Origin: Treponema sp.
GTDB taxonomy: Bacteria; Spirochaetota; Spirochaetia; Treponematales; Treponemataceae
NCBI GenBank assembly: GCA_016288205.1
Contig: JAEEYO010000060.1
Coordinates: forward strand, 1-64,000
DNA length: 64,000 bases
Reading direction: 5' to 3'
Shown: piece by piece, positions 15,398-27,203 of the stretch
How positions within the stretch are numbered: the first letter of the stretch is position 1
How the letters are laid out: the number at the start of each line of letters is the position of its first letter
The notes under the pieces: model-generated
Database searches by the model: none
Told to the model about the DNA's origin: nothing
Seen by the model: the letters and a program-made list of their open reading frames with translations, nothing else
Made by a program: the position numbers and the translations under genes

Positions 15398-15674
15398 ATC
15401 TCCTCCCAAAAATGGAATACCCAATACCCTCTTTCATTATCGGAATCAGGCTCACCGGTCTTTATAAAAACTTATTTTCCCGCGCGAGTTTGTGGTTTCA
15501 ATCACCATACCCCGCCACACGAATAAGAAAACCACCGTATCTTCCGTGCGAAACAAAAAAAATCAAAAAAATTTAAAAAAATTTGCAAATTTGTTTACCG
15601 TGGTGAAGATTTGCGGCTATTACTATAGTGAGGGAAAAAAATCCCTTAATCCAAATCAAAAAAAGAGGTGAACG

Positions 15675-16775
15675 ATGGAAAAAAGAAAGACATTAAAAAA
15701 AATACTGAGGGAGACAGTGGTTCCGTCACTGCTGCTGATTTTTTCAGTCCTTCTGAGTGTAATCCCGGGAGGATGCCGCACATCCATAGACGGAGTGGAA
15801 TTCCTTTCAGGAGATTTTACCATCCCGCAGGTGGAGGAAGTGCAGGTCGTTGACGCAAGCCATTTGTCGATGCTTCTTTCAAAGGAAGTAAGCGTAAACC
15901 GTGCGTGCGTGAAGACTGAGGAAAACGAGGATGACGGCAGGATTGAGATAGACGTGGAAAGCGCGATCTCCGAGGACGGCCACAGGATTGATTTTAATCT
16001 TGCGGAAAACACAAAGGTCGGCGGGCTCTATGTTCTTGAGGCTGAGCTTGAGGACTCAAGGGGCAACACTCTAACACTCAGCGTGGATTTCAAGGGATTC
16101 AACGACCGGGTGCCTGTCATGGCGTTTTCGGAAATCAGGACGGGAGCTTCGGCTTCAAAGTCCCAGTTTGAGTTCGTGGAATTGTACGTATTAAAGGAAG
16201 GAAATACGTCGGGTCTTTCCATCGTGAGCGCGGCGGACGGACTTGAAAGACGCTATCAGTTTCCTGCCATCGAGGTAAAAAAGGGAGAGCGGATTGTCGT
16301 GCATTACAGAAACTATGACAAGACCTGCGTGGATGAGACCGGGGAAAACCTGCTTGCGGCGAGCGCGGAAGATTGCAGTTCTGCCCGAGACCTTTTCATG
16401 CCACAGAACGAAAAGAGCTGCCTCGGCGACAAGACCGATGTAATCTTCTTGAAAAGCGATGACACAAAAATCATCTACGACGCGTTCGTGTATCTTGAGA
16501 AAGGAAAAAAGACGGCGTTCGATGAAAAGTACACATCTGCTTTGAGCGAGCTTGAGGAAAGCGGAATCTGGACGGACGCAAACGGAAACGCAGTGTGTTC
16601 CGCGGATTCTGCCTTTGACGGAAGCCAGATAAAAAGCGCGGCCCACTCGGTGAACAGAAAGTCGGTGACTTCCCTGCCCTGCGACGGCTCTTTGAAATCT
16701 GACAGAAGCCAGTGGTATGACATCGGGAAAAAGGCATTGCAGACTCCGGGGAAAGCAAATTCCCTGCCGCAGTAG
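15675..16775 (+). CDS. Lipoprotein with an Ig-like/lamin-tail-like layout
   Basis: 366 residues. The signal sequence ends in a relaxed spirochaetal lipobox (IPGGC). The mature part has two regions. About 45-145 looks like a bacterial Ig-like sandwich that ends ADLEDSRGNTLTLSVDFKG-style. About 150-360 opens VMAFSEIRTGASASKSQFEFVELYV and then ERIVVHYRNYD, a pattern seen in lamin-tail domains of Treponema surface proteins. It is probably anchored in a membrane, with a binding or structural role; no enzyme motif is visible. The ribosome binding site AAGAGGTG is clear. It ends 61 bases before the exporter promoter, so it may or may not belong to the secretion locus. Confidence 0.7.
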   Translation: MEKRKTLKKILRETVVPSLLLIFSVLLSVIPGGCRTSIDGVEFLSGDFTIPQVEEVQVVDASHLSMLLSKEVSVNRACVKTEENEDDGRIEIDVESAISEDGHRIDFNLAENTKVGGLYVLEAELEDSRGNTLTLSVDFKGFNDRVPVMAFSEIRTGASASKSQFEFVELYVLKEGNTSGLSIVSAADGLERRYQFPAIEVKKGERIVVHYRNYDKTCVDETGENLLAASAEDCSSARDLFMPQNEKSCLGDKTDVIFLKSDDTKIIYDAFVYLEKGKKTAFDEKYTSALSELEESGIWTDANGNAVCSADSAFDGSQIKSAAHSVNRKSVTSLPCDGSLKSDRSQWYDIGKKALQTPGKANSLPQ

Positions 16776-16835: not shown

Positions 16836-16863
16836 TTGATTTTTTTCATTTTCTTCGTACAAT
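16836..16863 (+). promoter_or_regulatory. Promoter of the type I secretion locus
   Basis: TTGATT (16836-16841), a 16-base T-rich spacer and TACAAT (16858-16863). The predicted start near 16870 leaves a short leader with GAGG before the TTG start at 16893. Because promoter and leader read as hydrophobic codons, the exporter frame could be mis-extended upstream to 16836. Confidence 0.7.
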
Positions 16864-16892
16864 CTAACTTCTATAAAGTTGAGGACTTGAAA

Positions 16893-19055
16893 TTGAGCTA
16901 CAACAAAAAGTTTTGTTTCGTAAAACAATTGGATGAGACTGACTGTGGAGCTGCCTGCATTGCGACGGTATCCAAGTATTACGGAAAATCCCTCTCATTC
17001 GCAAAGATAAGGGAACTTGCGGACACAGATTCCTTGGGCACAAGCGTAAAGGGAATGCAGAAAGCCGCGAAATGTCTGAACATGACATGCAAGGTTCTCA
17101 TATCAAAAGAAAAAACACTTAAGGACGACTATAATTATCCGTTGATATGCCACACCATCATAAACGGACTCAACCATTACGTCGTCGTTCTAAAAACCAA
17201 GCGCGACATGGTTCTTGTGGCAAACCCGGCGGAAAAAATCTCATGGGTAAAGAAGGATCAATTTCTTCAATGGTGGACGGGAGTATTTTTGTCTCTCGCA
17301 CCGACGATAGAATTTGAAAAGAACTCGGAGGACAAATCCTTTCTCGCACGCTTTTTATATCTATTAAAAGGCAGCAGATCCGTGGTCACTCTGGTCATAA
17401 TATCAAGCCTGTTCCTTACCCTGCTCGGGATTTTGGGCGCGTTCTATTTCCGCTTCCTGATTGACGACGTTCTTTATTCGCACATGAAGACTACGCTTGT
17501 AGCCATATCGCTTGGATACCTTGTCGCAATCATCTTTCAAAACATCCTGGGATACTCAAGGAACCATCTGGTCATGTTCCTGGGAAATAAAATAGAAGCG
17601 AAACTTCTCTTGAATTTTTTCCGGCACATAATGAGGCTGCCTCTGGATTATTTTGTGAAAAGAAAGGACGGTGAAATTCTCTCCCGGCTCTCCGACATCA
17701 ACTCAATAAAGAACGCGCTTTCGGCAATGACGGTCGGAGTGATTCTGGACAGCATAATGTTCATCTTCGGCGGCATCGTTCTCTTCGCGTTCAGTCCCAA
17801 GCTGGTTTTTGTCGCGATGATTCCGGTGATTCTTTCAGGGATTACGGTGCTCCTTTCATCATCCACATACAAACGTCTTATTTACAACAGGGCAGCGGTT
17901 GAGGCGGACAAGTACTCACATTTCGTGGAAAGCATAAGCGGCATCTCGACCATAAAGGCGCTCTCCGTGGAAAATGATTCTTATGGGAAAGCCGAGCTTA
18001 AAATCATCGACTCAATCCAAAAAGGTTTTTCACTCAACAACTTCGGGAACGCCATCGCAACGGTGGAATCCTTTCTTTCCCAGATAGGAAATCTGGTTGT
18101 CTATTTCTACGGAAGCATACTCATTATGAGGGGCGACATGTCTTTGGGCGAGCTGATTTCTTTCGTGACTTTACTCGGATTTTTCCTCGGACCGCTGAGC
18201 AGACTAATCACCTTGCAGCCACAGATTCAGGAGCTGTCCGTCGCGGGAAAAAGGCTCGGTGAGATATTTGACTCAAAGGAAGAAAGTGCGGAAAAAGATT
18301 TCTCATTCCATCTGGATAAAAAACATGACTTCAAGAAAATCAGCGTAAAAAACCTTTCGTTTGCATTCGGCTCCAGGGGAAACACCTTGCAGGACATAAA
18401 CCTTGAGATCAATGCGGGTCAGAAAGTCGCGTTCGTGGGAAGCTCGGGATCAGGGAAAACGACATTGATGAAACTGCTTTTGAAATTTTACAGCCCTGAC
18501 AAAGGAAAAATTCTTCTGGATGACAAAAACATCACGGACTACAACACAAGCGATTACAGAAATTATTTCGGTTATGTGCCGCAGGAAACTCTTTTGTTCA
18601 GCGACACCATACAGGGAAACATCGCGCTTGGAAATTACGATGCGTCTCCTGAGGAGATAAAAAAAGCCGCGGAAGATGCGGATGCCTTGGGATTCATCGA
18701 AAGACTGGATGAGGGATTTTCAACAAAGGTCGGGGAAAAAGGAGCCTCGCTTTCCGGAGGTGAGCGGCAGAGACTTTCGCTTGCAAGGGTTTTACTAAGG
18801 AAGCCGAAGATTCTTATTCTTGATGAAGCAACGTCCAGTCTGGACAGTCTCTCAGAAGCTTCAATCATGAACACAATTGACAATCTTCCGGAAGGGACAA
18901 CAACAATCATTGTGGCGCACCGTCTTTCCACAGTAACGAAGTGTGACAAAATCTTCGTGCTCGATGAAGGTAAGCTGGTGGAAGAAGGAACCCATGAAGA
19001 GCTTCTAAATAAGAACGGTTTTTATTCACGGCTGTGGAAGAGCCAGAATAAATAA
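16893..19055 (+). CDS. Peptidase-containing ABC exporter (C39 peptidase, membrane domain, ATPase)
   Basis: 720 residues from a TTG start at 16893, eight bases after GAGG; this gives the family N-terminus just before VKQLDETDCGAAC. Such exporters cut a double-glycine leader off their substrate and pump the mature protein across the inner membrane. Residues 1-125 are the C39 peptidase with Cys18 and His95; the third catalytic position, normally Asp, is Asn111. A six-helix membrane domain spans about 165-440. The ATPase has Walker A GSSGSGKTT, signature SLSGGERQR, Walker B ILILDEATSSLD and H-loop AHRLST. The next gene encodes a protein with a matching leader, and the adaptor and outer-membrane factor lie downstream. 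Confidence 0.94.
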   Translation: MSYNKKFCFVKQLDETDCGAACIATVSKYYGKSLSFAKIRELADTDSLGTSVKGMQKAAKCLNMTCKVLISKEKTLKDDYNYPLICHTIINGLNHYVVVLKTKRDMVLVANPAEKISWVKKDQFLQWWTGVFLSLAPTIEFEKNSEDKSFLARFLYLLKGSRSVVTLVIISSLFLTLLGILGAFYFRFLIDDVLYSHMKTTLVAISLGYLVAIIFQNILGYSRNHLVMFLGNKIEAKLLLNFFRHIMRLPLDYFVKRKDGEILSRLSDINSIKNALSAMTVGVILDSIMFIFGGIVLFAFSPKLVFVAMIPVILSGITVLLSSSTYKRLIYNRAAVEADKYSHFVESISGISTIKALSVENDSYGKAELKIIDSIQKGFSLNNFGNAIATVESFLSQIGNLVVYFYGSILIMRGDMSLGELISFVTLLGFFLGPLSRLITLQPQIQELSVAGKRLGEIFDSKEESAEKDFSFHLDKKHDFKKISVKNLSFAFGSRGNTLQDINLEINAGQKVAFVGSSGSGKTTLMKLLLKFYSPDKGKILLDDKNITDYNTSDYRNYFGYVPQETLLFSDTIQGNIALGNYDASPEEIKKAAEDADALGFIERLDEGFSTKVGEKGASLSGGERQRLSLARVLLRKPKILILDEATSSLDSLSEASIMNTIDNLPEGTTTIIVAHRLSTVTKCDKIFVLDEGKLVEEGTHEELLNKNGFYSRLWKSQNK

Positions 19056-19061
19056 TTGTAT

Positions 19062-19100
19062 ATGACGGGTATCATTCGCTATCCACAACAAAAAAAGAGG
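19062..19100 (+). repeat. Intergenic hairpin element, copy A
   Basis: First of four related elements in the secretion locus. After ATGAC comes stem GGGTA, loop TCATTCGC and stem TATCC (19067-19084), then CACAAC, an A-run and the ribosome binding site of the double-glycine protein. The stem pairs with one G-U. Confidence 0.8.
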
Positions 19101-19106
19101 TGAAAA

Positions 19107-20468
19107 ATGTTTAAGAGATTTAGGAACAACAAGAAGAGTTTTTACAAAGAACTTGTAGTGCCTGAAGGATGCCGTGAGCTGACAGACGAGGAGATGTTCA
19201 GGATCAACGGCGGAAGCACGGAGAAAAAAGACGGATCTCAGGGTTCTCAGGACTCAAAGGGAGAGTCTCAGAGCAGTTCTGTCACGGTACAGAGCGGCAA
19301 CACAATGAGCCAGATTGTGAGCGACTACAACAAGGCTAACGGCACGAATTACACCGTGAACGAAATTGCACAGAAAAATGGAATCTCGAATCCCGATGTC
19401 ATTCATCCGGGGCAGCATATCAATTTTGGAGATTCCTCATCAGGGGCTGGAAATCCGGCAAATTCTCCATCCGCTTCACAAGCAAATGGAAACTACGGCG
19501 CAAACGGTTCGTATGGTTCAAACGGTGTCTACGCATCAAACACGCCAACAAAATCTTCAAGCGAATCGGGAAAGATGACATCCACAGCGTCCTCTACAGG
19601 AACAAGTTACTCTTCCAGAGAGAGTACCCCACTAAGCCAGTTCAGCACAAAAGTTTCGAATACCTTCAAAAGAACTAAAACCCAGCTTGCAGAAAAAGCG
19701 AAAAAAGGAAATGCTGTTAGCGGAGAGGAGAGCATTGGCATTCAAGCAAATGGAAACAGCATTATAGGACAAAATGTTTCAGCCAGTCTAAGAGAGTTAA
19801 AAGAAAAACTGGTTTCAAAAACAAAAAATGAAAAAGCAGCCAATCAGACTCCTAACTCTGCAAATTGGGGCAAGCTTGAAAATCAGGATGCTTTGACAAT
19901 GCGAATGCAGGATTATAGGGACTATAAGGATGTGGCGAATAAAAAAAATCAAGCGAATATAAACGCCAAAGATACACAGATGAATGGGAGCAACTCTTTC
20001 AGTCTGTCAGGATGCAAAATGTGCGGGGCGGCAAAGATTGCAAGCGAGGTCGCTGGACGTAAAATCGAGATGAAAGACGACATCAATGATAAATACGATG
20101 CAAATGCAGATGGCTATATGTCACTTGAAGAAGTCACTTCCGCAATCAATGCAAATGTGCCTGAGGGCAAGACGCTGAAGAGCGATTGGTTTGAGAAAAC
20201 TTTGACCAAAGAAAAACTTGACGAGATAGCCGGCTGGGATGGAACCACATACATTCTAGGAAAAGCTGAGAATGTACATAACGGGGATCCTCACTGGGTC
20301 GTGCTTTCTGGCTATTCCGTAAATAATTTGGGACAGTTGCAATTTGATTACTCACCAACAAGCATAAATGATACAAAAAACAACAGATCATATATTCTTA
20401 GTGATCCCAAGGACGGACAAACAAATACTTACAAGATTGTAAAGATTGAAACATTTAATATTCAATAA
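19107..20468 (+). CDS. Secreted double-glycine-leader protein with LysM, EF-hand and C39-like Cys/His domain
   Basis: 453 residues. Residues 1-36 form a leader ending in Gly35-Gly36, with Leu25 (-12), Met30 (-7) and Ile33 (-4) at consensus positions, so the exporter upstream should cut after Gly36. A Ser/Gln-rich spacer is followed by a LysM-like domain (about 59-110), suggesting peptidoglycan binding. Then comes a Ser/Asn/Gly/Tyr-rich stretch (110-175) and a helical Lys-rich part. The C-terminal domain (about 300-453) has Cys306 in the context CGAA and His396 in DPHWVVLSGY, the arrangement of C39-like papain-fold peptidases. Between them a 12-residue EF-hand loop (331-342) has D, N, D, G and E at the ligand positions. 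This is far larger than a bacteriocin. Peptidase activity, target and cleavage are inferred. Confidence 0.8.
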   Translation: MFKRFRNNKKSFYKELVVPEGCRELTDEEMFRINGGSTEKKDGSQGSQDSKGESQSSSVTVQSGNTMSQIVSDYNKANGTNYTVNEIAQKNGISNPDVIHPGQHINFGDSSSGAGNPANSPSASQANGNYGANGSYGSNGVYASNTPTKSSSESGKMTSTASSTGTSYSSRESTPLSQFSTKVSNTFKRTKTQLAEKAKKGNAVSGEESIGIQANGNSIIGQNVSASLRELKEKLVSKTKNEKAANQTPNSANWGKLENQDALTMRMQDYRDYKDVANKKNQANINAKDTQMNGSNSFSLSGCKMCGAAKIASEVAGRKIEMKDDINDKYDANADGYMSLEEVTSAINANVPEGKTLKSDWFEKTLTKEKLDEIAGWDGTTYILGKAENVHNGDPHWVVLSGYSVNNLGQLQFDYSPTSINDTKNNRSYILSDPKDGQTNTYKIVKIETFNIQ

Positions 20469-20476
20469 TAGGAGAA

Positions 20477-20573
20477 AACAACATGAATAAATTTTTTAAA
20501 GTCTACTCACTTATGATGCTTTTGGCTTTCTTAATTTCCTGTAACAATGTCAAAACAGAGAAAAGCAAAGAGG
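20477..20573 (+). repeat. Direct repeat covering a lipoprotein signal peptide, copy 1
   Basis: 97 bases, identical at 96 positions to 22854-22950; the single difference is G at 20565 versus T at 22942. It spans the bases just before the ATG, the whole signal peptide and the first residues after the lipobox Cys. Downstream of it the two genes are unrelated. Confidence 0.95.
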
Positions 20574-21478
20574 CAAATTCACCAAGTGAAACAGCAACAT
20601 TATCTGTAGAGAGTACAGGTTCCGTGGAAAACAAAGTTCCAAAAGTTTTTGCTTCATATTTTTCACAAATGCTTCCAAATTATGATTTTTTAATAAGAAA
20701 TTCACTTTTTCAAGAATATCTTTATATTGAAAACCTAGACATGGTAAAAGACAAAATAGTCAAGGTGGAGCAAGAACGGTACACTCTCTATAACGGTAAC
20801 AAGTCTTGGGAAGGAGACGGCGATACTCAGGTTAAAATATGGAATTACTATGCGTTTGATTCTGACGGATTTATTACCGACGAATACAGTCTGTTCAGGG
20901 AAACTCCTGAAGATGGATACGTAACCTACTGGTTCCACTCCAAATATCGCTATGACGGAAACAGAATTTATGTGTCTACGAAAGACTATTGTGACAACAG
21001 CTCCTCTGAGTCCTATTACGAATTCACAGAAGACGGAGACAAGCTGATTTTTAAGTCCAAGGCCGCCACATCAGTGACTGAGTACCTTAAGGACAAACAG
21101 ATTTATTACCCTGACTACAGCGACAAATCCAAATTCACTGAGACCATCTTTGTTGGAGACAGACAAATTAACAACGACTGGAGGGATGGAGAAATCGTCT
21201 GGATAACGGAAATGGAACGCGGCGCACAGGTAAAAAGGCAGTTCCCATATCTGAAACGCATTGCAACGGAAACGTATGAGTTTAACGGAGAGGAAGGAGT
21301 AATCAAACTGGACGGAGAAATCACAGGAAAAGTACGGAGAAAAATGCATCCCGCGGGATTTGTGGAAGAGGACGAGAAAGGTCCGGTTGAAGACGGTTCG
21401 AACGGCGTATACGAGATTAAATATACAAAAATCTTGGATGCCCCGGATGAAATATTAAAAAAATACTTTGAGTTTTGA
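20483..21478 (+). CDS. Lipoprotein of the secretion locus (unknown function)
   Basis: 331 residues starting 15 bases after the stop of the double-glycine protein, with AGGAG upstream, so the two are tightly coupled. The signal peptide ends in lipobox LISC. The mature protein begins with a polar linker and continues as a strand-rich domain with many Tyr/Asp/Gly turns (for example YRYDGNRIYVSTKDY and YYEFTEDGDKLIF), a pattern of MORN-like or antiparallel beta-repeat proteins. I do not recognise a family. Its position directly behind a candidate secreted peptidase makes an immunity, inhibitor or surface-docking role worth testing. It lacks the hairpin element found before other genes of the locus. 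Confidence 0.8.
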   Translation: MNKFFKVYSLMMLLAFLISCNNVKTEKSKEANSPSETATLSVESTGSVENKVPKVFASYFSQMLPNYDFLIRNSLFQEYLYIENLDMVKDKIVKVEQERYTLYNGNKSWEGDGDTQVKIWNYYAFDSDGFITDEYSLFRETPEDGYVTYWFHSKYRYDGNRIYVSTKDYCDNSSSESYYEFTEDGDKLIFKSKAATSVTEYLKDKQIYYPDYSDKSKFTETIFVGDRQINNDWRDGEIVWITEMERGAQVKRQFPYLKRIATETYEFNGEEGVIKLDGEITGKVRRKMHPAGFVEEDEKGPVEDGSNGVYEIKYTKILDAPDEILKKYFEF

Positions 21479-21613
21479 ATGCTCATTGATTCGACCAAAA
21501 GGCATCATGTAAAATAAGTTTTACAATGCTTAAAGATTTAGAAGAGGAAACAAGGTGAGCCTTGAAAAAAAGCTTTTAGATGCCAACATTTACAACTATT
21601 TACAGGAGAAATT

Positions 21614-22792
21614 ATGAAAAAAAATATTTTGAAATCTGTTCTTGCCATTTGTACCTTGATTTTTGCCGCATGCACAAACAAGCAGGAGCAGAACACGGAC
21701 TTAACATCTTCATTGGAAAAACAGAACAATGAGACTGTTCAGGAAAAAAACGTCACACCACAGGACGACAGGATTTATATAAAGTTCTTATATGAAAAAA
21801 ACTATGGCTTACTGGACTCAAAATTAAATATCATTGAGAAAAATAATTACAGGGATATATTTCTCATAAATGATAATATCTTTTTCCTTGATGCAAATGA
21901 GGTCAGAATTACTGATTTAGATTTGAAGCCAAAAGCCGAAGTGAAAATGAATGCTGACAACAAGATTATGAATATCTTCTATTTAATTGATGATTTTTAC
22001 TGTCTGAAAATGTTTGATACAAATGATATTGTCTATAACATGAAGAGCGGTGAGAGCGTTTCGTACGGACAGTTGGATTCCAATCATTCAAACAAATCAA
22101 CTTCATTCTTGCAACCTGTTTGGACCAGAGGATATTATGTTTCTCTGCTTGACGGAAAACAGTATTTTAACGACAGGAATTATGAAAAAACATTTCAGTT
22201 CTCAAACGGACTCGCGGCAGTCCTAAAGGAAGATTGGTCAAAGGCTTTAATCAATGAGGACGGAACAATCATTCTTGATGATGTAGTGAATTGCGGAAAA
22301 GCTTTTACTAATGGACTTATGCCCGTCATAACGAAAAAAACTTCCGGCTACATCAACGGAAATGGTGAGTTTGTCTTCAACTGTGATTTGGTAGACGAGG
22401 ACTGGAGAACGAATGTAAGTGGACGCCCAACGCTACGCGGAAGTTTCACAGAGGATTATGCTTATGTTCACACGAAAGATAATTGCTGGACGATTATGGC
22501 AATGGACGGAACAATAATAAAAGACAATATCCCGTATGAAACACGGAGCGACGGTTTCTCATGTGGCCTGATTAATGTATACAGCAATGGAAAATCTGGA
22601 TATGCCAACAGAAGCGGGGAACTTGCAATTCCAATGGTCTTTGATTCCTCAGAAGATTTCTCAAATGGATACGCGATGGTAATCTATCAGGGAGAAAATG
22701 GAATCCTCGATACAAATGGAAATGTCTATCTATGCAAGGACTTATTTAACGGCAACAAAAAACCTTTTGTAAATGTGACAGACATTCAATAG
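21614..22792 (+). CDS. WG-repeat lipoprotein
   Basis: 392 residues. Lipobox FAAC, then a polar linker. The mature part contains degenerate WG-type beta repeats of about 35-40 residues: FSNGLAAVLKEDWSKALINE, FTNGLMPVITKKTSGYING, FSCGLINVYSNGKSGYANRSG and FSNGYAMVIYQGENGILD. WG repeats form extended beta folds and usually mediate binding rather than catalysis. The ribosome binding site is ACAGGAG. The 135 bases before it hold no convincing gene, only a possible 20-codon GTG frame that would end over the start codon. The coding sequence is clearly A+T-rich compared with the TolC gene of the same locus. Confidence 0.82.
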   Translation: MKKNILKSVLAICTLIFAACTNKQEQNTDLTSSLEKQNNETVQEKNVTPQDDRIYIKFLYEKNYGLLDSKLNIIEKNNYRDIFLINDNIFFLDANEVRITDLDLKPKAEVKMNADNKIMNIFYLIDDFYCLKMFDTNDIVYNMKSGESVSYGQLDSNHSNKSTSFLQPVWTRGYYVSLLDGKQYFNDRNYEKTFQFSNGLAAVLKEDWSKALINEDGTIILDDVVNCGKAFTNGLMPVITKKTSGYINGNGEFVFNCDLVDEDWRTNVSGRPTLRGSFTEDYAYVHTKDNCWTIMAMDGTIIKDNIPYETRSDGFSCGLINVYSNGKSGYANRSGELAIPMVFDSSEDFSNGYAMVIYQGENGILDTNGNVYLCKDLFNGNKKPFVNVTDIQ

Positions 22793-22802
22793 TTAAATAT
22801 TT

Positions 22803-22853
22803 TTGACGACACATGACGGATACCATTCACTATCCACAACAAAAAAAAGAGAG
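22803..22853 (+). repeat. Intergenic hairpin element, copy B
   Basis: TTGACGACACATGAC, then stem GGATA, loop CCATTCAC and stem TATCC (22818-22835), then CACAAC, an A-run and AGAGAG. The stem is perfectly paired; relative to copy A and C a G-U pair has become A-U. Confidence 0.85.
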
Positions 22854-22950
22854 AACAACATGAATAAATTTTTTAAAGTCTACTCACTTATGATGCTTTT
22901 GGCTTTCTTAATTTCCTGTAACAATGTCAAAACAGAGAAAATCAAAGAGG
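22854..22950 (+). repeat. Direct repeat covering a lipoprotein signal peptide, copy 2
   Basis: Second copy of the 97-base segment at 20477-20573 with one mismatch. It supplies the start codon context and signal peptide of the lipoprotein at 22860. Confidence 0.95.
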
Positions 22951-23882
22951 ATGAAGTTGCTGTCAATATTGATCAGTCTGCATCCCCTGTAAAATCCGCC
23001 AGTGCCAAAGAAACGGAAACGAAAGAACCGATGCCGGTTGTGGACATGGGGTTTTCATTTGAAAAATATTACATCACAAGTTTATCCTGCACATTTGGTG
23101 GAATGGATATCAAAGATGGAAAAATTGCCTATACAGCCGGCACAACAACTGCCCCTGATTCTGATTCCGAAAAAATGCCAACGGAAGTCACCTATGAGTT
23201 CACGCATATAGACGGGATGCCGTTTATTAAAATGGAAAAGCCTTTTCCAAAGGAGTTTCTTTCTGATTATGTTAATTATGGCACGGACGCAAAGCCTGAT
23301 AACAAAATGCTTTTCCTTGTATGTAAAACAAAAGAGTTGGGAATTCAGGCACTTGGCATTACCCGCGCGAATGATTCAGATTTTATGATTATAGAACCTC
23401 GTTGGATGGAGATGTCATCAAGAATTTACAAAGACGAGACATCGCACTTTATTGAAAAAAACGGAGTGGAATATCCGGTAAAAAACCTTTGCAAAATGGA
23501 CTCCGAAACTCCTTGGGCAGAAGGAGCTACCGGACATGGAATCGGAGAATCCTTTGTTCTGGAAAACACCTGGGGAACAGTGTACAAAACCCTACTTATA
23601 ATGAACGGTTATATTTCTTATGAAAGGCCGTATCTTTACAAGGAGAACGGACGCATAAAGAAAATAAAAGTAGCCGGCGTAAAAAGCGGTAAAGAAAAAA
23701 TACTTGATGTCCTTGACACGCCACACCCCCAGAGCGTGGACATAGGTTTCATCACAGAGCCGGAAGATTTGAGGATAACAATAGAAGATGTTTATCCTGG
23801 AACAAAATATGAGGACACATGCATTCATTTTATGATTACATCTATGGATGAAGTTGTCCCATACGAGCTTTCGATTAAGTAA
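22860..23882 (+). CDS. Lipoprotein of the secretion locus sharing a signal peptide with the 20483 gene
   Basis: 340 residues from the ATG at 22860. An earlier in-frame start at 22803 would run through hairpin copy B and hide the signal peptide, so it is rejected. The signal peptide and first mature residues are identical to those of the lipoprotein at 20483 except one Ser/Ile difference, while the rest is unrelated. The mature domain has about 300 residues with a Cys/Gly-rich stretch (TSLSCTFGGMDIKDGKIAYT) and mixed strands; no family is recognised. Exchange of mature domains behind a constant signal sequence is typical of rapidly diversifying surface or immunity genes. Confidence 0.8.
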   Translation: MNKFFKVYSLMMLLAFLISCNNVKTEKIKEDEVAVNIDQSASPVKSASAKETETKEPMPVVDMGFSFEKYYITSLSCTFGGMDIKDGKIAYTAGTTTAPDSDSEKMPTEVTYEFTHIDGMPFIKMEKPFPKEFLSDYVNYGTDAKPDNKMLFLVCKTKELGIQALGITRANDSDFMIIEPRWMEMSSRIYKDETSHFIEKNGVEYPVKNLCKMDSETPWAEGATGHGIGESFVLENTWGTVYKTLLIMNGYISYERPYLYKENGRIKKIKVAGVKSGKEKILDVLDTPHPQSVDIGFITEPEDLRITIEDVYPGTKYEDTCIHFMITSMDEVVPYELSIK

Positions 23883-23900
23883 ACAAGAATTAAGAAATTT

Positions 23901-23952
23901 TTGACGACACATGACGGGTATCATTCACTATCCACAACAAAAAAAAGAGAGA
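23901..23952 (+). repeat. Intergenic hairpin element, copy C
   Basis: Nearly identical to copy B over about 50 bases. TTGACGACACATGAC precedes stem GGGTA, loop TCATTCAC and stem TATCC, followed by CACAAC, an A-run and AGAGAG before the HlyD-family start. Confidence 0.85.
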
Positions 23953-23959
23953 TAAAAAA

Positions 23960-25102
23960 ATGTTAGTTTATTCAGATCAAAATCTTACAAGGACACAGGA
24001 ATTTTTCTTCAAGCAAAAACCCACGATGCAGCGGAATCTGATAATTGCAATCATTGTCTCCATCGTCGTGACACTTGCCTGGTTTGTATTCGCGCCGTTT
24101 GAGGAAGTAATCAGATGCTCAGGATACATAAGGCCACGAAGCAATATATCCACATTGTCAAATGCCGTAACCGGAAGAATAATAAAAGTGGATTACAATC
24201 CCGGAAAAGCGGTAAAGAAAGGGGACCTGCTTTTAAGCATAGATCCAACGCAGATATTAAAAGAAAAGGAATCCGTTGCCACCGAGCTGAGCGAGCAAGA
24301 GAAAAGATTGCAGGGATTGAAATATATCAATGAAAGCATAGCTCAAGGAAGGAATCTTATTCCAACTGAGTATAAAGAGGCTGATTTAAGATTCAAAAAA
24401 TGGCAGGAAGATATCAGGCAGCTGGAGAAGACAAAAAACTACAATCTCCAGATTTTGAATGAAGAAAAGAACCTGCCGGTGAACATGACCACGGAAGCAC
24501 GTCTGAGGGATTATTCGTACAGATACAATTCTGCCCTGAACGAGTACACCGCCCTTAACACATCATTCAGGCACGACGTAACTCAGGAAATAGAGGTCTT
24601 GGAAAAAAACATAAAGCTCAACAAAACAAAGCTGGAGCAGATTGAGGACTCGCTGAAATACACGAACGTCATCGCACCCATTGACGGAATCATTCAGGAG
24701 ATATCGGCACTCAATCCCGGTGACTGGATTCAGAGCGGACAGAAATTGTTCAATATAGTGCCATGCGGAAACAAGGATTGCATTGTGGAGCTGTCTGTCC
24801 CCGCAACCCAGGCAGGAAGACTTACGGAAGAGTCGGAAGTAAAACTTCGTTTTCCCAGTCTGCCATACTATGAATATGGAGGAGCAAAAGGAAAGATATT
24901 GACAATCGACCCTGATATTTCTGCGACAAGCAATGGAACGGCAGTTTTTGTGGTTCGCACGGACATGGATAAAAACACCTTGAATGGAAAATCAGGAAAA
25001 AACTTTCCATTGAGGATCGGATTGCAGACTGACGCAAGAATAATAGTGAGCAAAAGAACCTTATTGGGATATGTTTTGGAGAAATTGAACCTATGGTATT
25101 GA
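23960..25102 (+). CDS. HlyD-type periplasmic adaptor of the type I secretion system
   Basis: 380 residues. It has a short cytoplasmic N-terminus, one membrane helix (about 26-46, LIIAIIVSIVVTLAWFVFAP), then a biotinyl-lipoyl half (VTGRIIKVDYNPGKAVKKGDLLLSID), a long alpha-hairpin (about 95-235) and the second lipoyl half (VIAPIDGIIQEISALNPGDWI). The C-terminal beta domain ends RIIVSKRTLLGYVLEKLNLWY as in HlyD/LcnD adaptors. It bridges the inner-membrane exporter and the TolC-type channel encoded next. Its last ten bases overlap the next gene. Confidence 0.93.
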   Translation: MLVYSDQNLTRTQEFFFKQKPTMQRNLIIAIIVSIVVTLAWFVFAPFEEVIRCSGYIRPRSNISTLSNAVTGRIIKVDYNPGKAVKKGDLLLSIDPTQILKEKESVATELSEQEKRLQGLKYINESIAQGRNLIPTEYKEADLRFKKWQEDIRQLEKTKNYNLQILNEEKNLPVNMTTEARLRDYSYRYNSALNEYTALNTSFRHDVTQEIEVLEKNIKLNKTKLEQIEDSLKYTNVIAPIDGIIQEISALNPGDWIQSGQKLFNIVPCGNKDCIVELSVPATQAGRLTEESEVKLRFPSLPYYEYGGAKGKILTIDPDISATSNGTAVFVVRTDMDKNTLNGKSGKNFPLRIGLQTDARIIVSKRTLLGYVLEKLNLWY

Positions 25103-26574
25103 GAACAAAAGTCATCGCAATTCTGTTTCTCCTCTTTTCAACAGGACACATGTTTTCCCAGGAAACAAGAGGCGGTAACTACGCGGTCTCCGTGATCGGC
25201 ACTGTCCTGAGGGAGTCTCCGGAGGGGATAATCATCCGGAACAATGTTGACGCAAGCGGAACGGCAATCTCCCAGCAGGAGAAGTCATGGCTGCCGTCCG
25301 TCCAGTTGGATTTCTCCGCGGACTCAAGGCTCGTGCAGGGAGAATACCGGTACATCAAAAACGGAGGAGTCATCACGGCACCCCAGATCATCACCTCCCC
25401 CTCCGCAGGAATCGCACTGTCACAGAGGCTGCCCGGAAACGGAAGCCTGTCACTCGGCGCGGGCTACTCGGTCTCATGCCTTACAGGACGAGACGCATAC
25501 ATCCAGCAGCCCTACATTCAGGTCAGTCTCTCGCAGAGCATTGCCCCGGGAGCGTTCTTTCTCACGAAGGATCCGTCCTTAGAGATGATCAAGAACCAGA
25601 GGGATCTCCTGATCATGGAAAGCGACGGCGCGATGTTCGAGCTCGCTGTCAGCTTCATCACGGCGGTGCAGGACTACGACCTCGCATTGCAGGAGAAGGA
25701 ATATTACGGCGCGATGCTGAGGAAGTCGGACGCTGAGTACGAGGAGCAGAGCCACAGGCACAGGAGCGGACAGAGGAACAACATCGAGCTCTTCAACTCG
25801 CACATGAGCCATACTCAGGCGGCGCAGGGATACCAGGAGGCAGGGCGGAAACTCAGCGAGGCGGAGGCAGTCCTTGGACGCTACAAAATATGCGGCATAG
25901 AAAATCAATGCGGACAGTTCAGGGACGGAGTCAGAATCCTGCTGGATATACCTTACGAGGGCAGGGATAGCCAGACCATGCAGGAATATGAGATTCTGAG
26001 CGAGATAACGAGCGAGGAGCTTTCCCTGAGGATTGACAGGTCAAAACTCGCGCCACAGATCTACATGCAGGCATCCGTCTCGCCGGACCAGAACAAGAAC
26101 GGTGAGTACAGGGACATGAGCCGTTCTCTGAGGGATCTCGCGGACACGCCATACGCATGGACAATGGACGCGACGGTCGGGGTCAGCATCGCACTGGACC
26201 TTGCCTCGCAGGGAAAGGCATTGCGTGAGGTGTCGGACAAAAAAATCAGGAGCCTGAGCCTGCAGCTGGACGTACTCCGTGACGAGCAGGAGAAAATGAG
26301 GGGCCTGTACCGTGAGTGGTGCGTGTCATTCTCCGCATATTGCGCTCAGATGGAGCGTGCTCTGGGCGAGGAGGAGGAATTCAGGAGGGACATGAAAACC
26401 CTGCTTGAGAGGAACGAGATAACCGAGGCGCAGTACTGGGCGACCGAGACAAGCTACTACGAGACGCGGCTGAGCTATTACCGAAGCGTCTGGGGCATGA
26501 TCCAGGGGAAGCTCGGCATACTGAGGCTCTCGTCCGGATGGATGGATTTTATCAGACAATTTATGGAGGCATGA
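25093..26574 (+). CDS. TolC-type outer-membrane efflux protein
   Basis: 493 residues, overlapping the adaptor gene by ten bases. It has a Sec signal peptide (VIAILFLLFSTGHMFSQ). The mature protein shows the two-fold alpha-hairpin and beta-strand plan of the family: long helices around 170-260 and 385-470, each beside short amphipathic strands. It should form the outer-membrane exit duct for the double-glycine substrate. The codon choice is different from the preceding genes, with abundant AGG and CTG and a visibly higher G+C, while translational overlap shows that it now functions in the same operon. The domain identification rests on overall pattern rather than a sharp motif. Confidence 0.85.
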   Translation: MVLRTKVIAILFLLFSTGHMFSQETRGGNYAVSVIGTVLRESPEGIIIRNNVDASGTAISQQEKSWLPSVQLDFSADSRLVQGEYRYIKNGGVITAPQIITSPSAGIALSQRLPGNGSLSLGAGYSVSCLTGRDAYIQQPYIQVSLSQSIAPGAFFLTKDPSLEMIKNQRDLLIMESDGAMFELAVSFITAVQDYDLALQEKEYYGAMLRKSDAEYEEQSHRHRSGQRNNIELFNSHMSHTQAAQGYQEAGRKLSEAEAVLGRYKICGIENQCGQFRDGVRILLDIPYEGRDSQTMQEYEILSEITSEELSLRIDRSKLAPQIYMQASVSPDQNKNGEYRDMSRSLRDLADTPYAWTMDATVGVSIALDLASQGKALREVSDKKIRSLSLQLDVLRDEQEKMRGLYREWCVSFSAYCAQMERALGEEEEFRRDMKTLLERNEITEAQYWATETSYYETRLSYYRSVWGMIQGKLGILRLSSGWMDFIRQFMEA

Positions 26575-26575
26575 T

Positions 26576-27091
26576 ATGAAAAAGTTTTTTGGGGCATGTT
26601 TATTGCTTTTATTCTCACTCGCAGGATGCACAATGCTCAATGCACCAGAGGGAACTGCGGAGATTTCGGAGCCGACTGTCCGCACAAGGATTGAACGCCC
26701 TACAGCAAGCGAGGAGGTCGTGTATTGCAGCGCGGACGTGAAGATCTCCAACACGAGCGACAAGACCATATACGGCTGCACCGTCACGGCTGTGGCGACA
26801 TCCGACACGGGCATAGAGCATTATGTGACGCTGAGCTATGACGTGAACATACCGCCGTCGCAGAGCATATATGTCACAATTGAGTGGAGCCTTGTAAGGC
26901 AGATAGATACCAAGACCAAAGTGGTATCAGAAACCAGCTCGCATATACCGGGCTCAAGTGTAACAAGCTCAACATCAAGTTCATCAAGCTCAACTTCTAC
27001 CACAAGCACGACAGCGAGTGTCACGGATTCAAACGAGGAGAAGGACTGGAACAAGAGCTCCGTAAGGATAGTGGATTATTTTTTCAATTAA
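26576..27091 (+). CDS. Small lipoprotein with Ser/Thr-rich tail, last gene of the secretion operon
   Basis: 171 residues starting one base after the TolC stop. Lipobox LAGC. Residues 40-115 look like a small FxLYD/DUF-type beta sandwich (VYCSADVKISNTSDKTIYGC then IPPSQSIYVTIEW), a layout common in lipoproteins that decorate outer-membrane complexes. Residues 120-150 are almost entirely Ser/Thr. It shares the higher-G+C codon style of the TolC gene and probably arrived with it. It could assist assembly or anchoring of the channel; this is inference. Its stop is followed by hairpin copy D and the operon terminator. Confidence 0.75.
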   Translation: MKKFFGACLLLLFSLAGCTMLNAPEGTAEISEPTVRTRIERPTASEEVVYCSADVKISNTSDKTIYGCTVTAVATSDTGIEHYVTLSYDVNIPPSQSIYVTIEWSLVRQIDTKTKVVSETSSHIPGSSVTSSTSSSSSSTSTTSTTASVTDSNEEKDWNKSSVRIVDYFFN

Positions 27092-27106
27092 ATATTTTAC
27101 GTCCGG

Positions 27107-27140
27107 ACATGACGGGTATCATTCAATGCCCACAAAAAAA
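27107..27140 (+). repeat. Intergenic hairpin element, copy D
   Basis: Degenerate fourth copy after the last gene. ACATGAC, stem GGGTA, loop TCATTCAA, stem TGCCC, then CACA and an A-run. The right arm differs from the other copies (TGCCC instead of TATCC), yet still pairs fully with GGGTA allowing one U-G. Confidence 0.75.
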
Positions 27141-27143
27141 TGG

Positions 27144-27203
27144 AACTTCCGCAAGCTCAGGAACACAATCGGTTTACGTGAACCAAGCAAGCGGAAGTTT
27201 TAA
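27144..27203 (+). terminator. Rho-independent terminator of the secretion operon
   Basis: AACTTCCGC (27144-27152) pairs perfectly with GCGGAAGTT (27191-27199) and a T-run follows. An inner hairpin GGTT...AACC sits in the loop. On the other strand it could also help to end the convergent membrane-protein genes at 27227. Confidence 0.8.

What the first reader, a model, noticed from the sequence alone, without database searches (positions are those of the whole stretch)
16836..27203. A complete type I secretion locus for a large double-glycine protein with cell-wall-binding and peptidase-like domains
Seen: a peptidase-containing ABC exporter, a 453-residue protein with a leader ending Gly35-Gly36 and correctly placed Leu25/Met30/Ile33, then lipoproteins, an HlyD adaptor and a TolC-type channel, ended by a strong terminator. 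The substrate carries a LysM-like domain, a canonical EF-hand loop (331-342) and a C39-like domain with Cys306 and His396. Known: double-glycine leaders normally belong to small bacteriocins, and C39 exporters cut them. Inference: this is an effector-type secretion system in a spirochaete that places a calcium-controlled, wall-bound cysteine peptidase outside the cell, with the neighbouring lipoproteins as possible immunity, inhibitor or anchoring partners. I know of no described system with this combination.
Basis: partly seen in the sequence, partly recalled or inferred. Interest (0 to 1): 0.88.

Follow-up and report, generated by a model that had tools for sequence, protein, structure and literature searches.

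The report
Spirochaete antibacterial toxin-and-immunity export locus
A gut-type Treponema carries a one-step export machine whose cargo is one of a large, mix-and-match family of probable cell-wall-attacking toxins, each paired with its own protective protein, which points to a so far undescribed way in which spirochaetes may fight rival bacteria.

Summary
The locus is real. A C39 peptidase-ABC exporter is followed by a 453-aa protein with a textbook double-glycine leader, a LysM domain and a C-terminal domain with a canonical EF-hand, then three lipoproteins, HlyD, an OEP channel and a fourth lipoprotein. The C-terminal domain folds as a papain/C39-like peptidase (AlphaFold pLDDT 87). One detail is wrong: the invariant nucleophile is Cys303, not Cys306; the proposed triad is Cys303-His396-Asp422.

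The cargo is one member of a polymorphic family. I found 69 large proteins near C39 exporters or carrying related modules in Treponema; nearly all have the leader, and their C-termini vary: M23, VanY/M15, phage lysozyme, Ntox44 and several papain-like classes. Each is followed by a secreted or membrane protein, and that protein's family tracks the toxin class (41 of 45 homologous pairs; 0 of 10,000 permutations). The window's toxin domain also sits on VgrG spikes and a related one on RHS proteins. So this is a polymorphic toxin-immunity system exported by a double-glycine type I pathway. The closest described system is T. denticola TepA1B1, whose large cargo is secreted but of unknown function. 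The lipoproteins are cognate (LP1) and probably orphan (LP2, LP3) immunity. Toxicity and target are untested.

The parts
16836..19055 (+). C39 peptidase-containing ABC exporter (739 aa if the TTG start is used)
   Evidence: TIGR01193 582 bits, PF03412 113 bits; only C39 domain in the genome
19048..19103 (+). Intergenic repeat copy 1, left border of the toxin-immunity cassette
   Evidence: the repeat finder D2; core found only three times in the genome at up to 3 mismatches
19107..20468 (+). Polymorphic toxin (cargo), 453 aa: double-glycine leader 1-36, LysM 60-105, Ser/Asn/Gly-rich linker, EF-hand papain-like domain about 252-453
20013..20015 (+). Codon of Cys303, predicted nucleophile (with His396 and Asp422)
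   Evidence: invariant in 18 of 18 relatives; residue positions
20483..21478 (+). LP1, predicted cognate immunity lipoprotein
   Evidence: family directly downstream of the same toxin class at seven places in six genomes; decayed toxin upstream in two more
21614..22792 (+). LP2, WG-repeat lipoprotein, predicted orphan immunity
   Evidence: homologues follow class-4 toxins in three genomes
22799..22854 (+). Intergenic repeat copy 2
22803..23882 (+). LP3, lipoprotein with NADase-type glycan-binding domain, predicted orphan immunity; likely true start at 22860; its 5' end is 95% identical to that of LP1 over 111 nt
   Evidence: NF047619 105 bits; repeat D1; homologue follows another toxin in L036
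23897..23952 (+). Intergenic repeat copy 3, right border of the cassette
23960..25102 (+). HlyD-type periplasmic adaptor
   Evidence: PF13437, TIGR01843
25093..26574 (+). OEP/TolC-type outer-membrane channel
   Evidence: PF02321 25.1 bits, cut-off 22
26576..27091 (+). LP4, lipoprotein that travels with the exporter, probably part of the apparatus
   Evidence: 19 family members in the loci, most directly after an ORF of 490-553 aa (the OEP where tested)
27141..27203 (+). Terminator-like stem-loop
   Evidence: -23 kcal/mol, z -4.85

Best explanation
The locus is a polymorphic toxin-immunity system whose export route is a double-glycine (C39/PCAT) type I secretion system. SHOWN from sequence: one shared N-terminal export module (leader, often LysM) on many different C-terminal domains; a class-specific secreted or membrane protein next to each; the same toxin domain on other delivery platforms. 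INFERRED: the cargo is made with its leader, the C39 domain cuts after Gly36, and the mature protein (from Ser37) leaves in one step through ABC-HlyD-OEP. LysM then docks it on peptidoglycan of a competing cell, most likely a relative. There the EF-hand papain-like domain, folded with extracellular calcium, uses Cys303/His396/Asp422 to cut an envelope bond, most likely a peptidoglycan peptide. LP1 protects the producer from self and kin in the periplasm or at the surface. LP2 and LP3 are spare immunity genes against toxins that this cassette does not encode. Cassettes are exchanged by recombination at short repeats and shared leader or signal sequences.
For: 69 clustered large proteins; C-termini include M23, VanY/M15, phage lysozyme and Ntox44 above Pfam cut-offs. 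60 of 66 downstream genes have an N-terminal hydrophobic segment against 38% of background. 41 of 45 homologous downstream pairs share the toxin class, permutation maximum 14. Window toxin class in 23 of 196 genus genomes and LP1 family in 15 of 196; 7 of the 16 genomes with strong toxin hits have LP1 (p 2.6e-5), and the toxin lies directly upstream of LP1 at 7 places. Toxin remnants upstream of orphan LP1 in two genomes. Same domain on two VgrG/Pvc8-like proteins of T. succinifaciens plasmid pTRESU01, each followed by a homologous signal-peptide protein; related domain on three RHS proteins, two of them followed by a lipoprotein. Fold: best VIA-align match the PCAT1 C39 domain (Z 10.0), Foldseek first hit the CdiA-CT toxin 8ssm (E 6e-4); viral library first hit a mycobacteriophage Lysin A (E 4.8e-3). 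T. denticola secretes its large double-glycine proteins (PMC11879956).
Against: No toxicity has been shown for any member; T. denticola inhibited none of seven tested oral strains (PMC11879956). How a ~44-kDa protein would pass a competitor's outer membrane is unexplained. Peptidoglycan as the target is inferred from LysM and from sibling domains, only 5 of 70 of which Pfam recognises as wall hydrolases; known papain-like toxins (Cpe1) cut cytosolic proteins (PMC12136450). LP1 and the VgrG-linked downstream family are not detectably related.
Confidence: 0.78

Rival explanations
1. The cargo is a housekeeping or nutritional wall enzyme or protease: secreted to remodel the cell's own wall or to digest peptidoglycan or protein in the gut, with the lipoproteins as anchors or regulators.
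For: LysM plus hydrolase domains are common in autolysins; peptidoglycan hydrolases are among the siblings.
Against: Patchy distribution (23 of 196 genomes), C-terminal exchange, Ntox44, class-specific neighbours, orphan neighbours with decayed toxins, the same domain on VgrG and RHS.
Confidence: 0.08
2. The papain-like domain is an interbacterial toxin but targets a protein (envelope or cytosol), like Cpe1, rather than peptidoglycan. This differs from the best explanation only in the target.
For: Papain-like CDI/T6SS toxins are among the best structural matches (8ssm, 9l5u); Cpe1 cleaves GyrB/ParE (PMC12136450).
Against: LP1 has a lipoprotein signal, so protection is outside the cytoplasm; the module carries LysM; siblings include wall hydrolases. 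An envelope protein target is not excluded.
Confidence: 0.3
3. The cargo is a host-directed protease, with the lipoproteins as chaperones or surface anchors.
For: Host-associated genus; papain-like bacterial effectors such as AvrPphB and YopQ appear among the fold matches.
Against: Peptidoglycan-hydrolase siblings in the same family of loci and class-matched immunity-like neighbours.
Confidence: 0.06

Closest known systems
Treponema denticola TepA1-TepB1 with TDE_0416/0422/0424 and clustered lipoproteins (PMC4947327, PMC11879956)
   Same: C39-ABC plus HlyD exporter next to large (607, 614 aa) double-glycine proteins and lipoproteins; the proteins are found in the supernatant. I recognise the locus as L178 from the protein lengths and gene order.
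   Different: Described cargo has no LysM or peptidase; function reported as unknown; no toxin-immunity reading. The same region holds a 395-aa double-glycine + LysM protein beside a lipoprotein that I did not find mentioned in the parts of the two papers I read.
Polymorphic toxin systems (Zhang et al. 2012, PMC3482391), including Tox-PL-C39 domains
   Same: Conserved trafficking N-terminus, exchangeable C-terminal toxin, adjacent immunity gene, orphan immunity, the same domain on VgrG and RHS.
   Different: The held text of the survey contains neither 'T1SS' nor 'type I secretion' nor 'double-glycine'; the export module here is a double-glycine leader.
Caulobacter Cdz system (PMC5380434)
   Same: Bacteriocin pair secreted by a type I system, with an immunity protein.
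   Different: Small glycine-zipper proteins that aggregate on the surface; one fixed toxin pair; membrane immunity protein; no enzyme domain.
Class II bacteriocins/microcins exported by PCATs
   Same: Leader consensus and C39-ABC exporter.
   Different: Those are small peptides; here 453 aa with enzyme and wall-binding domains.
Cpe1/Cpi1 and CdiA-CT papain-like toxins (PMC12136450; PDB 8ssm, 9l5u)
   Same: Papain-like fold toxin followed by an immunity gene.
   Different: CDI/T6SS delivery and, for Cpe1, cytosolic targets; here EF-hand insert, double-glycine export and lipoprotein immunity.

Membership tests
Polymorphic toxin system | Conserved N-terminal export module with exchangeable C-terminal domains | tested here: met
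   69 proteins fall into 26 C-terminal clusters under shared leaders
Polymorphic toxin system | Class-specific immunity gene directly downstream | tested here: met
   41 of 45 homologous downstream pairs share the toxin class; 0 of 10,000 permutations; genomic association only
Polymorphic toxin system | Toxin domain shared between delivery platforms | tested here: met
   VgrG and, in related form, RHS
Polymorphic toxin system | Orphan immunity genes and toxin remnants | tested here: met
   G033 and G121; LP2 and LP3 in the window
Polymorphic toxin system | Toxicity and neutralisation by the cognate immunity protein | not testable with these tools
   needs experiment
Double-glycine (PCAT) export | Leader with Leu(-12), Met/Leu(-7), Ile/Val(-4), GG(-2,-1) and a C39-ABC exporter | tested here: met
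   15.8 bits against a cut-off of 15.7
Double-glycine (PCAT) export | Actual cleavage after Gly36 and secretion | not testable with these tools
   needs mass spectrometry of a culture
Class II bacteriocin | Small peptide | tested here: not met
   453 aa
RTX-type type I substrate | RTX nonapeptide repeats | tested here: not met
   no RTX/hemolysin-type calcium-binding family among the Pfam matches of the cargo; N-terminal leader instead
Papain-like cysteine peptidase superfamily | Papain fold | tested here: met
   pLDDT 87.2; PCAT1 C39 Z 10.0 (3.1 A over 133 residues), staphopain Z 9.6
Papain-like cysteine peptidase superfamily | Conserved Cys-His-Asp | tested here: met
   Cys303, His396 and Asp422 invariant in 18 relatives; geometry not measured
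Peptidase C39 / C39_2 (Pfam) | Profile match of the C-terminal domain | tested here: not met
   no match up to E = 1; so works like, not filed as, Pfam C39
EF-hand protein | Canonical 12-residue loop | tested here: met
   DANADGYMSLEE; Asp, Gly, Glu invariant; Pfam EF-hand below cut-off in the window protein; calcium binding untested

The most novel reading that the evidence does not exclude
Double-glycine type I secretion is a general, unrecognised delivery route for polymorphic toxins in Treponemataceae, with a wall-docking LysM module, calcium-dependent folding as a switch that keeps the peptidase off inside the cell, and repeat-bracketed cassettes that swap toxins and collect spare immunity genes.
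Probability: 0.45. Interest if true: 0.85.

Novelty: new variant of a known kind. Interest (0 to 1): 0.74.

Why it matters
Antibacterial weapons of spirochaetes are little studied. This gives a testable function to the large 'bacteriocin-type signal' proteins and 'clustered lipoproteins' reported in T. denticola without known activity, adds a type I route to polymorphic toxin delivery, and names defined toxin-immunity pairs (window cargo/LP1; class-4 toxin/LP2 family). It also offers a reason for negative killing tests: strains that hold orphan immunity genes would resist, so the indicator strain must be chosen by immunity-gene content.

Tried and rejected
Cys306 as nucleophile: rejected, not conserved. 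RTX substrate or small bacteriocin: rejected. My first grouping by full-length profiles drifted to all leader-bearing proteins, so the classes were redone on the last 190 residues. The intergenic repeat as part of the hlyD start: dropped, since a partial copy also follows LP4. LP1 related to the VgrG-linked downstream family: not detectable. Phages: no match to the domain; plasmids: only T. succinifaciens. In the phylum sample the domain was found only in the same genus. The NlpC/P60- or CHAP-like reading of class 4 is by eye (Cys and His motifs); the class-4 members scanned had no Pfam match to such a family.

Full report
WHAT IS THERE. The window lies in a 3.5-Mb, 77-contig Treponema genome (G000:C72; the genus follows from matches to T. 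succinifaciens and T. denticola relatives). From 16836 to 27091 the + strand holds: C39-ABC exporter; cargo (453 aa); lipoproteins LP1, LP2, LP3; HlyD; OEP channel; lipoprotein LP4; then a stable stem-loop. The exporter is the only C39 protein of the genome. The cargo's leader fits the double-glycine consensus (LTDEEMFRINGG, TIGR01847 just over its cut-off), followed by a significant LysM and a C-terminal domain with an EF-hand.

CORRECTION. In an alignment of 18 relatives, Cys303, His396, Trp397, Ser419, Asp422 and Arg427 and the EF-hand Asp, Gly and Glu are invariant; Cys306 is not (positions counted from residue 252). The nucleophile is therefore most likely Cys303 in the motif GC[KL]M. AlphaFold gives a confident model (pLDDT 87.2, pTM 0.85). 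VIA-align puts it with the PCAT1 and ComA C39 domains (Z 10.0 and 9.8), phytochelatin synthase, staphopain, the pseudomurein endoisopeptidase PeiR (9.1) and two papain-like toxins, 9l5u and 8ssm (8.9). Foldseek's first hit is the CDI toxin 8ssm; in the viral library it is a phage Lysin A. These Z values are close to one another, so they fix the fold and not the function.

ONE OF MANY. The cargo gene has two siblings in its own genome (contig 53) with the same leader and LysM but other C-termini. C39 matches occur in 86 of 200 genus genomes. I fetched about 105 such regions and called ORFs: 69 large proteins remained, nearly all with the leader; 27 of 74 loci with a full-length C39 exporter hold at least one. 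Their last 190 residues form 26 clusters. Pfam finds M23 (2), VanY/M15 (2), phage lysozyme (1), Ntox44 (1) and DUF4329 (1) among 70 scanned; LysM in 9. The window's class is the largest (17). Other classes look papain-like by motif or, with tiny membrane neighbours, like pore formers; those two readings are mine. The system extends to other genera of the family, including T. denticola.

IMMUNITY. Of 66 same-strand genes directly downstream of a cargo gene, 60 begin with a hydrophobic segment (background 38%). Homology between downstream proteins, with the signal region removed, follows the toxin class: 41 of 45 homologous pairs, against at most 14 in 10,000 permutations. These pairs come from related genomes and are not independent, so the count is support and not a formal probability. 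LP1's family occurs in 15 of 196 genus genomes and the toxin domain in 23 (16 strongly); 7 of those 16 also have LP1 (hypergeometric p 2.6e-5), and the toxin is directly upstream of LP1 at 7 places. In G033 and G121 only toxin fragments remain upstream of an LP1 homologue. LP2 homologues follow class-4 toxins in three genomes; LP3's closest homologue follows a different toxin. So the window holds one cognate and two apparently orphan immunity genes. LP4 instead follows the channel gene in most loci and is probably apparatus.

CASSETTE. In G033 the exporter and hlyD genes abut behind the same upstream gene; in the window the toxin-immunity genes lie between them, bracketed by a 56-nt repeat (19048, 23897) with a third copy before LP3. 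Its core occurs nowhere else in the genome at up to three mismatches; a partial fourth copy follows LP4. LP1 and LP3 share 111 nt at 95% over their 5' ends. This suggests exchange by homologous recombination; direction and mechanism are inferred.

OTHER PLATFORMS. On T. succinifaciens plasmid pTRESU01 the same domain ends two VgrG/Pvc8-like proteins, each followed by a homologous signal-peptide protein; the plasmid carries further VgrG genes, one next to a 'polymorphic toxin type 44' gene. Related domains end three RHS proteins of 1,900-2,000 aa, two of them followed by a lipoprotein. A domain that moves between type I cargo, contractile spikes and RHS proteins is best read as a toxin domain.

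KNOWN AND NEW. Double-glycine export, papain-like toxins and polymorphic toxins are each known. T. denticola's TepA1B1 locus is a described relative; its large proteins are secreted, no killing was seen, and function was left open (PMC4947327, PMC11879956). The 2012 survey of polymorphic toxin export routes does not mention type I secretion in the text held, and nine paper searches found no description of this combination; the library is open-access only, so absence is weak evidence. I file it as a new variant of polymorphic toxin systems.

LIMITS. No toxicity, cleavage, calcium effect or binding has been shown. The wall target is the least certain step: about 0.5 for a peptidoglycan peptide and 0.3 for a protein. 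Entry into a target cell is unexplained. ORF calling was simple and some starts are uncertain. Most genomes are drafts, so cassette counts are lower bounds.

Noticed in passing
window 19048-19103, 22799-22854, 23897-23952 and about 27110-27140: A 56-nt intergenic repeat at cassette borders; three close copies and one partial copy after LP4, core not found elsewhere in the genome.
   Followed up: partly
window 20463-20573 and 22840-22950: LP1 and LP3 share 111 nt at 95% identity (signal peptide region), then diverge fully: a recombinant 5' end.
   Followed up: partly
window 15675-16775: A 366-aa protein upstream of the exporter is conserved in the same place in G033 (621.8 bits, L036); no Pfam match.
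   Followed up: no
L178:16697-17884 (-) and 15666-16682 (-): In the T. denticola tepA1 region, a 395-aa double-glycine + LysM protein lies next to a TPR-like repeat lipoprotein.
   Followed up: no
L170, L171 (NC_015386 30937-98000): T. succinifaciens plasmid with many VgrG/Pvc8 and baseplate-V genes near different toxin-like genes: a spike-borne arsenal.
   Followed up: partly
L033:9061-13011: Second cargo locus of the same genome: two leader+LysM proteins with other C-termini; a nearly identical C-terminus and downstream gene to the first occur in G052 (L034:5454-7419).
   Followed up: partly
L212:4611-10421, L213:1-5739, L214:4888-10779: RHS proteins with a related papain-like C-terminus.
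   Followed up: partly
L138, L140, L152 and others: Many C39 loci in the genus encode only small (50-160 aa) double-glycine proteins, several copies in a row in some: ordinary-size bacteriocin candidates.
   Followed up: no
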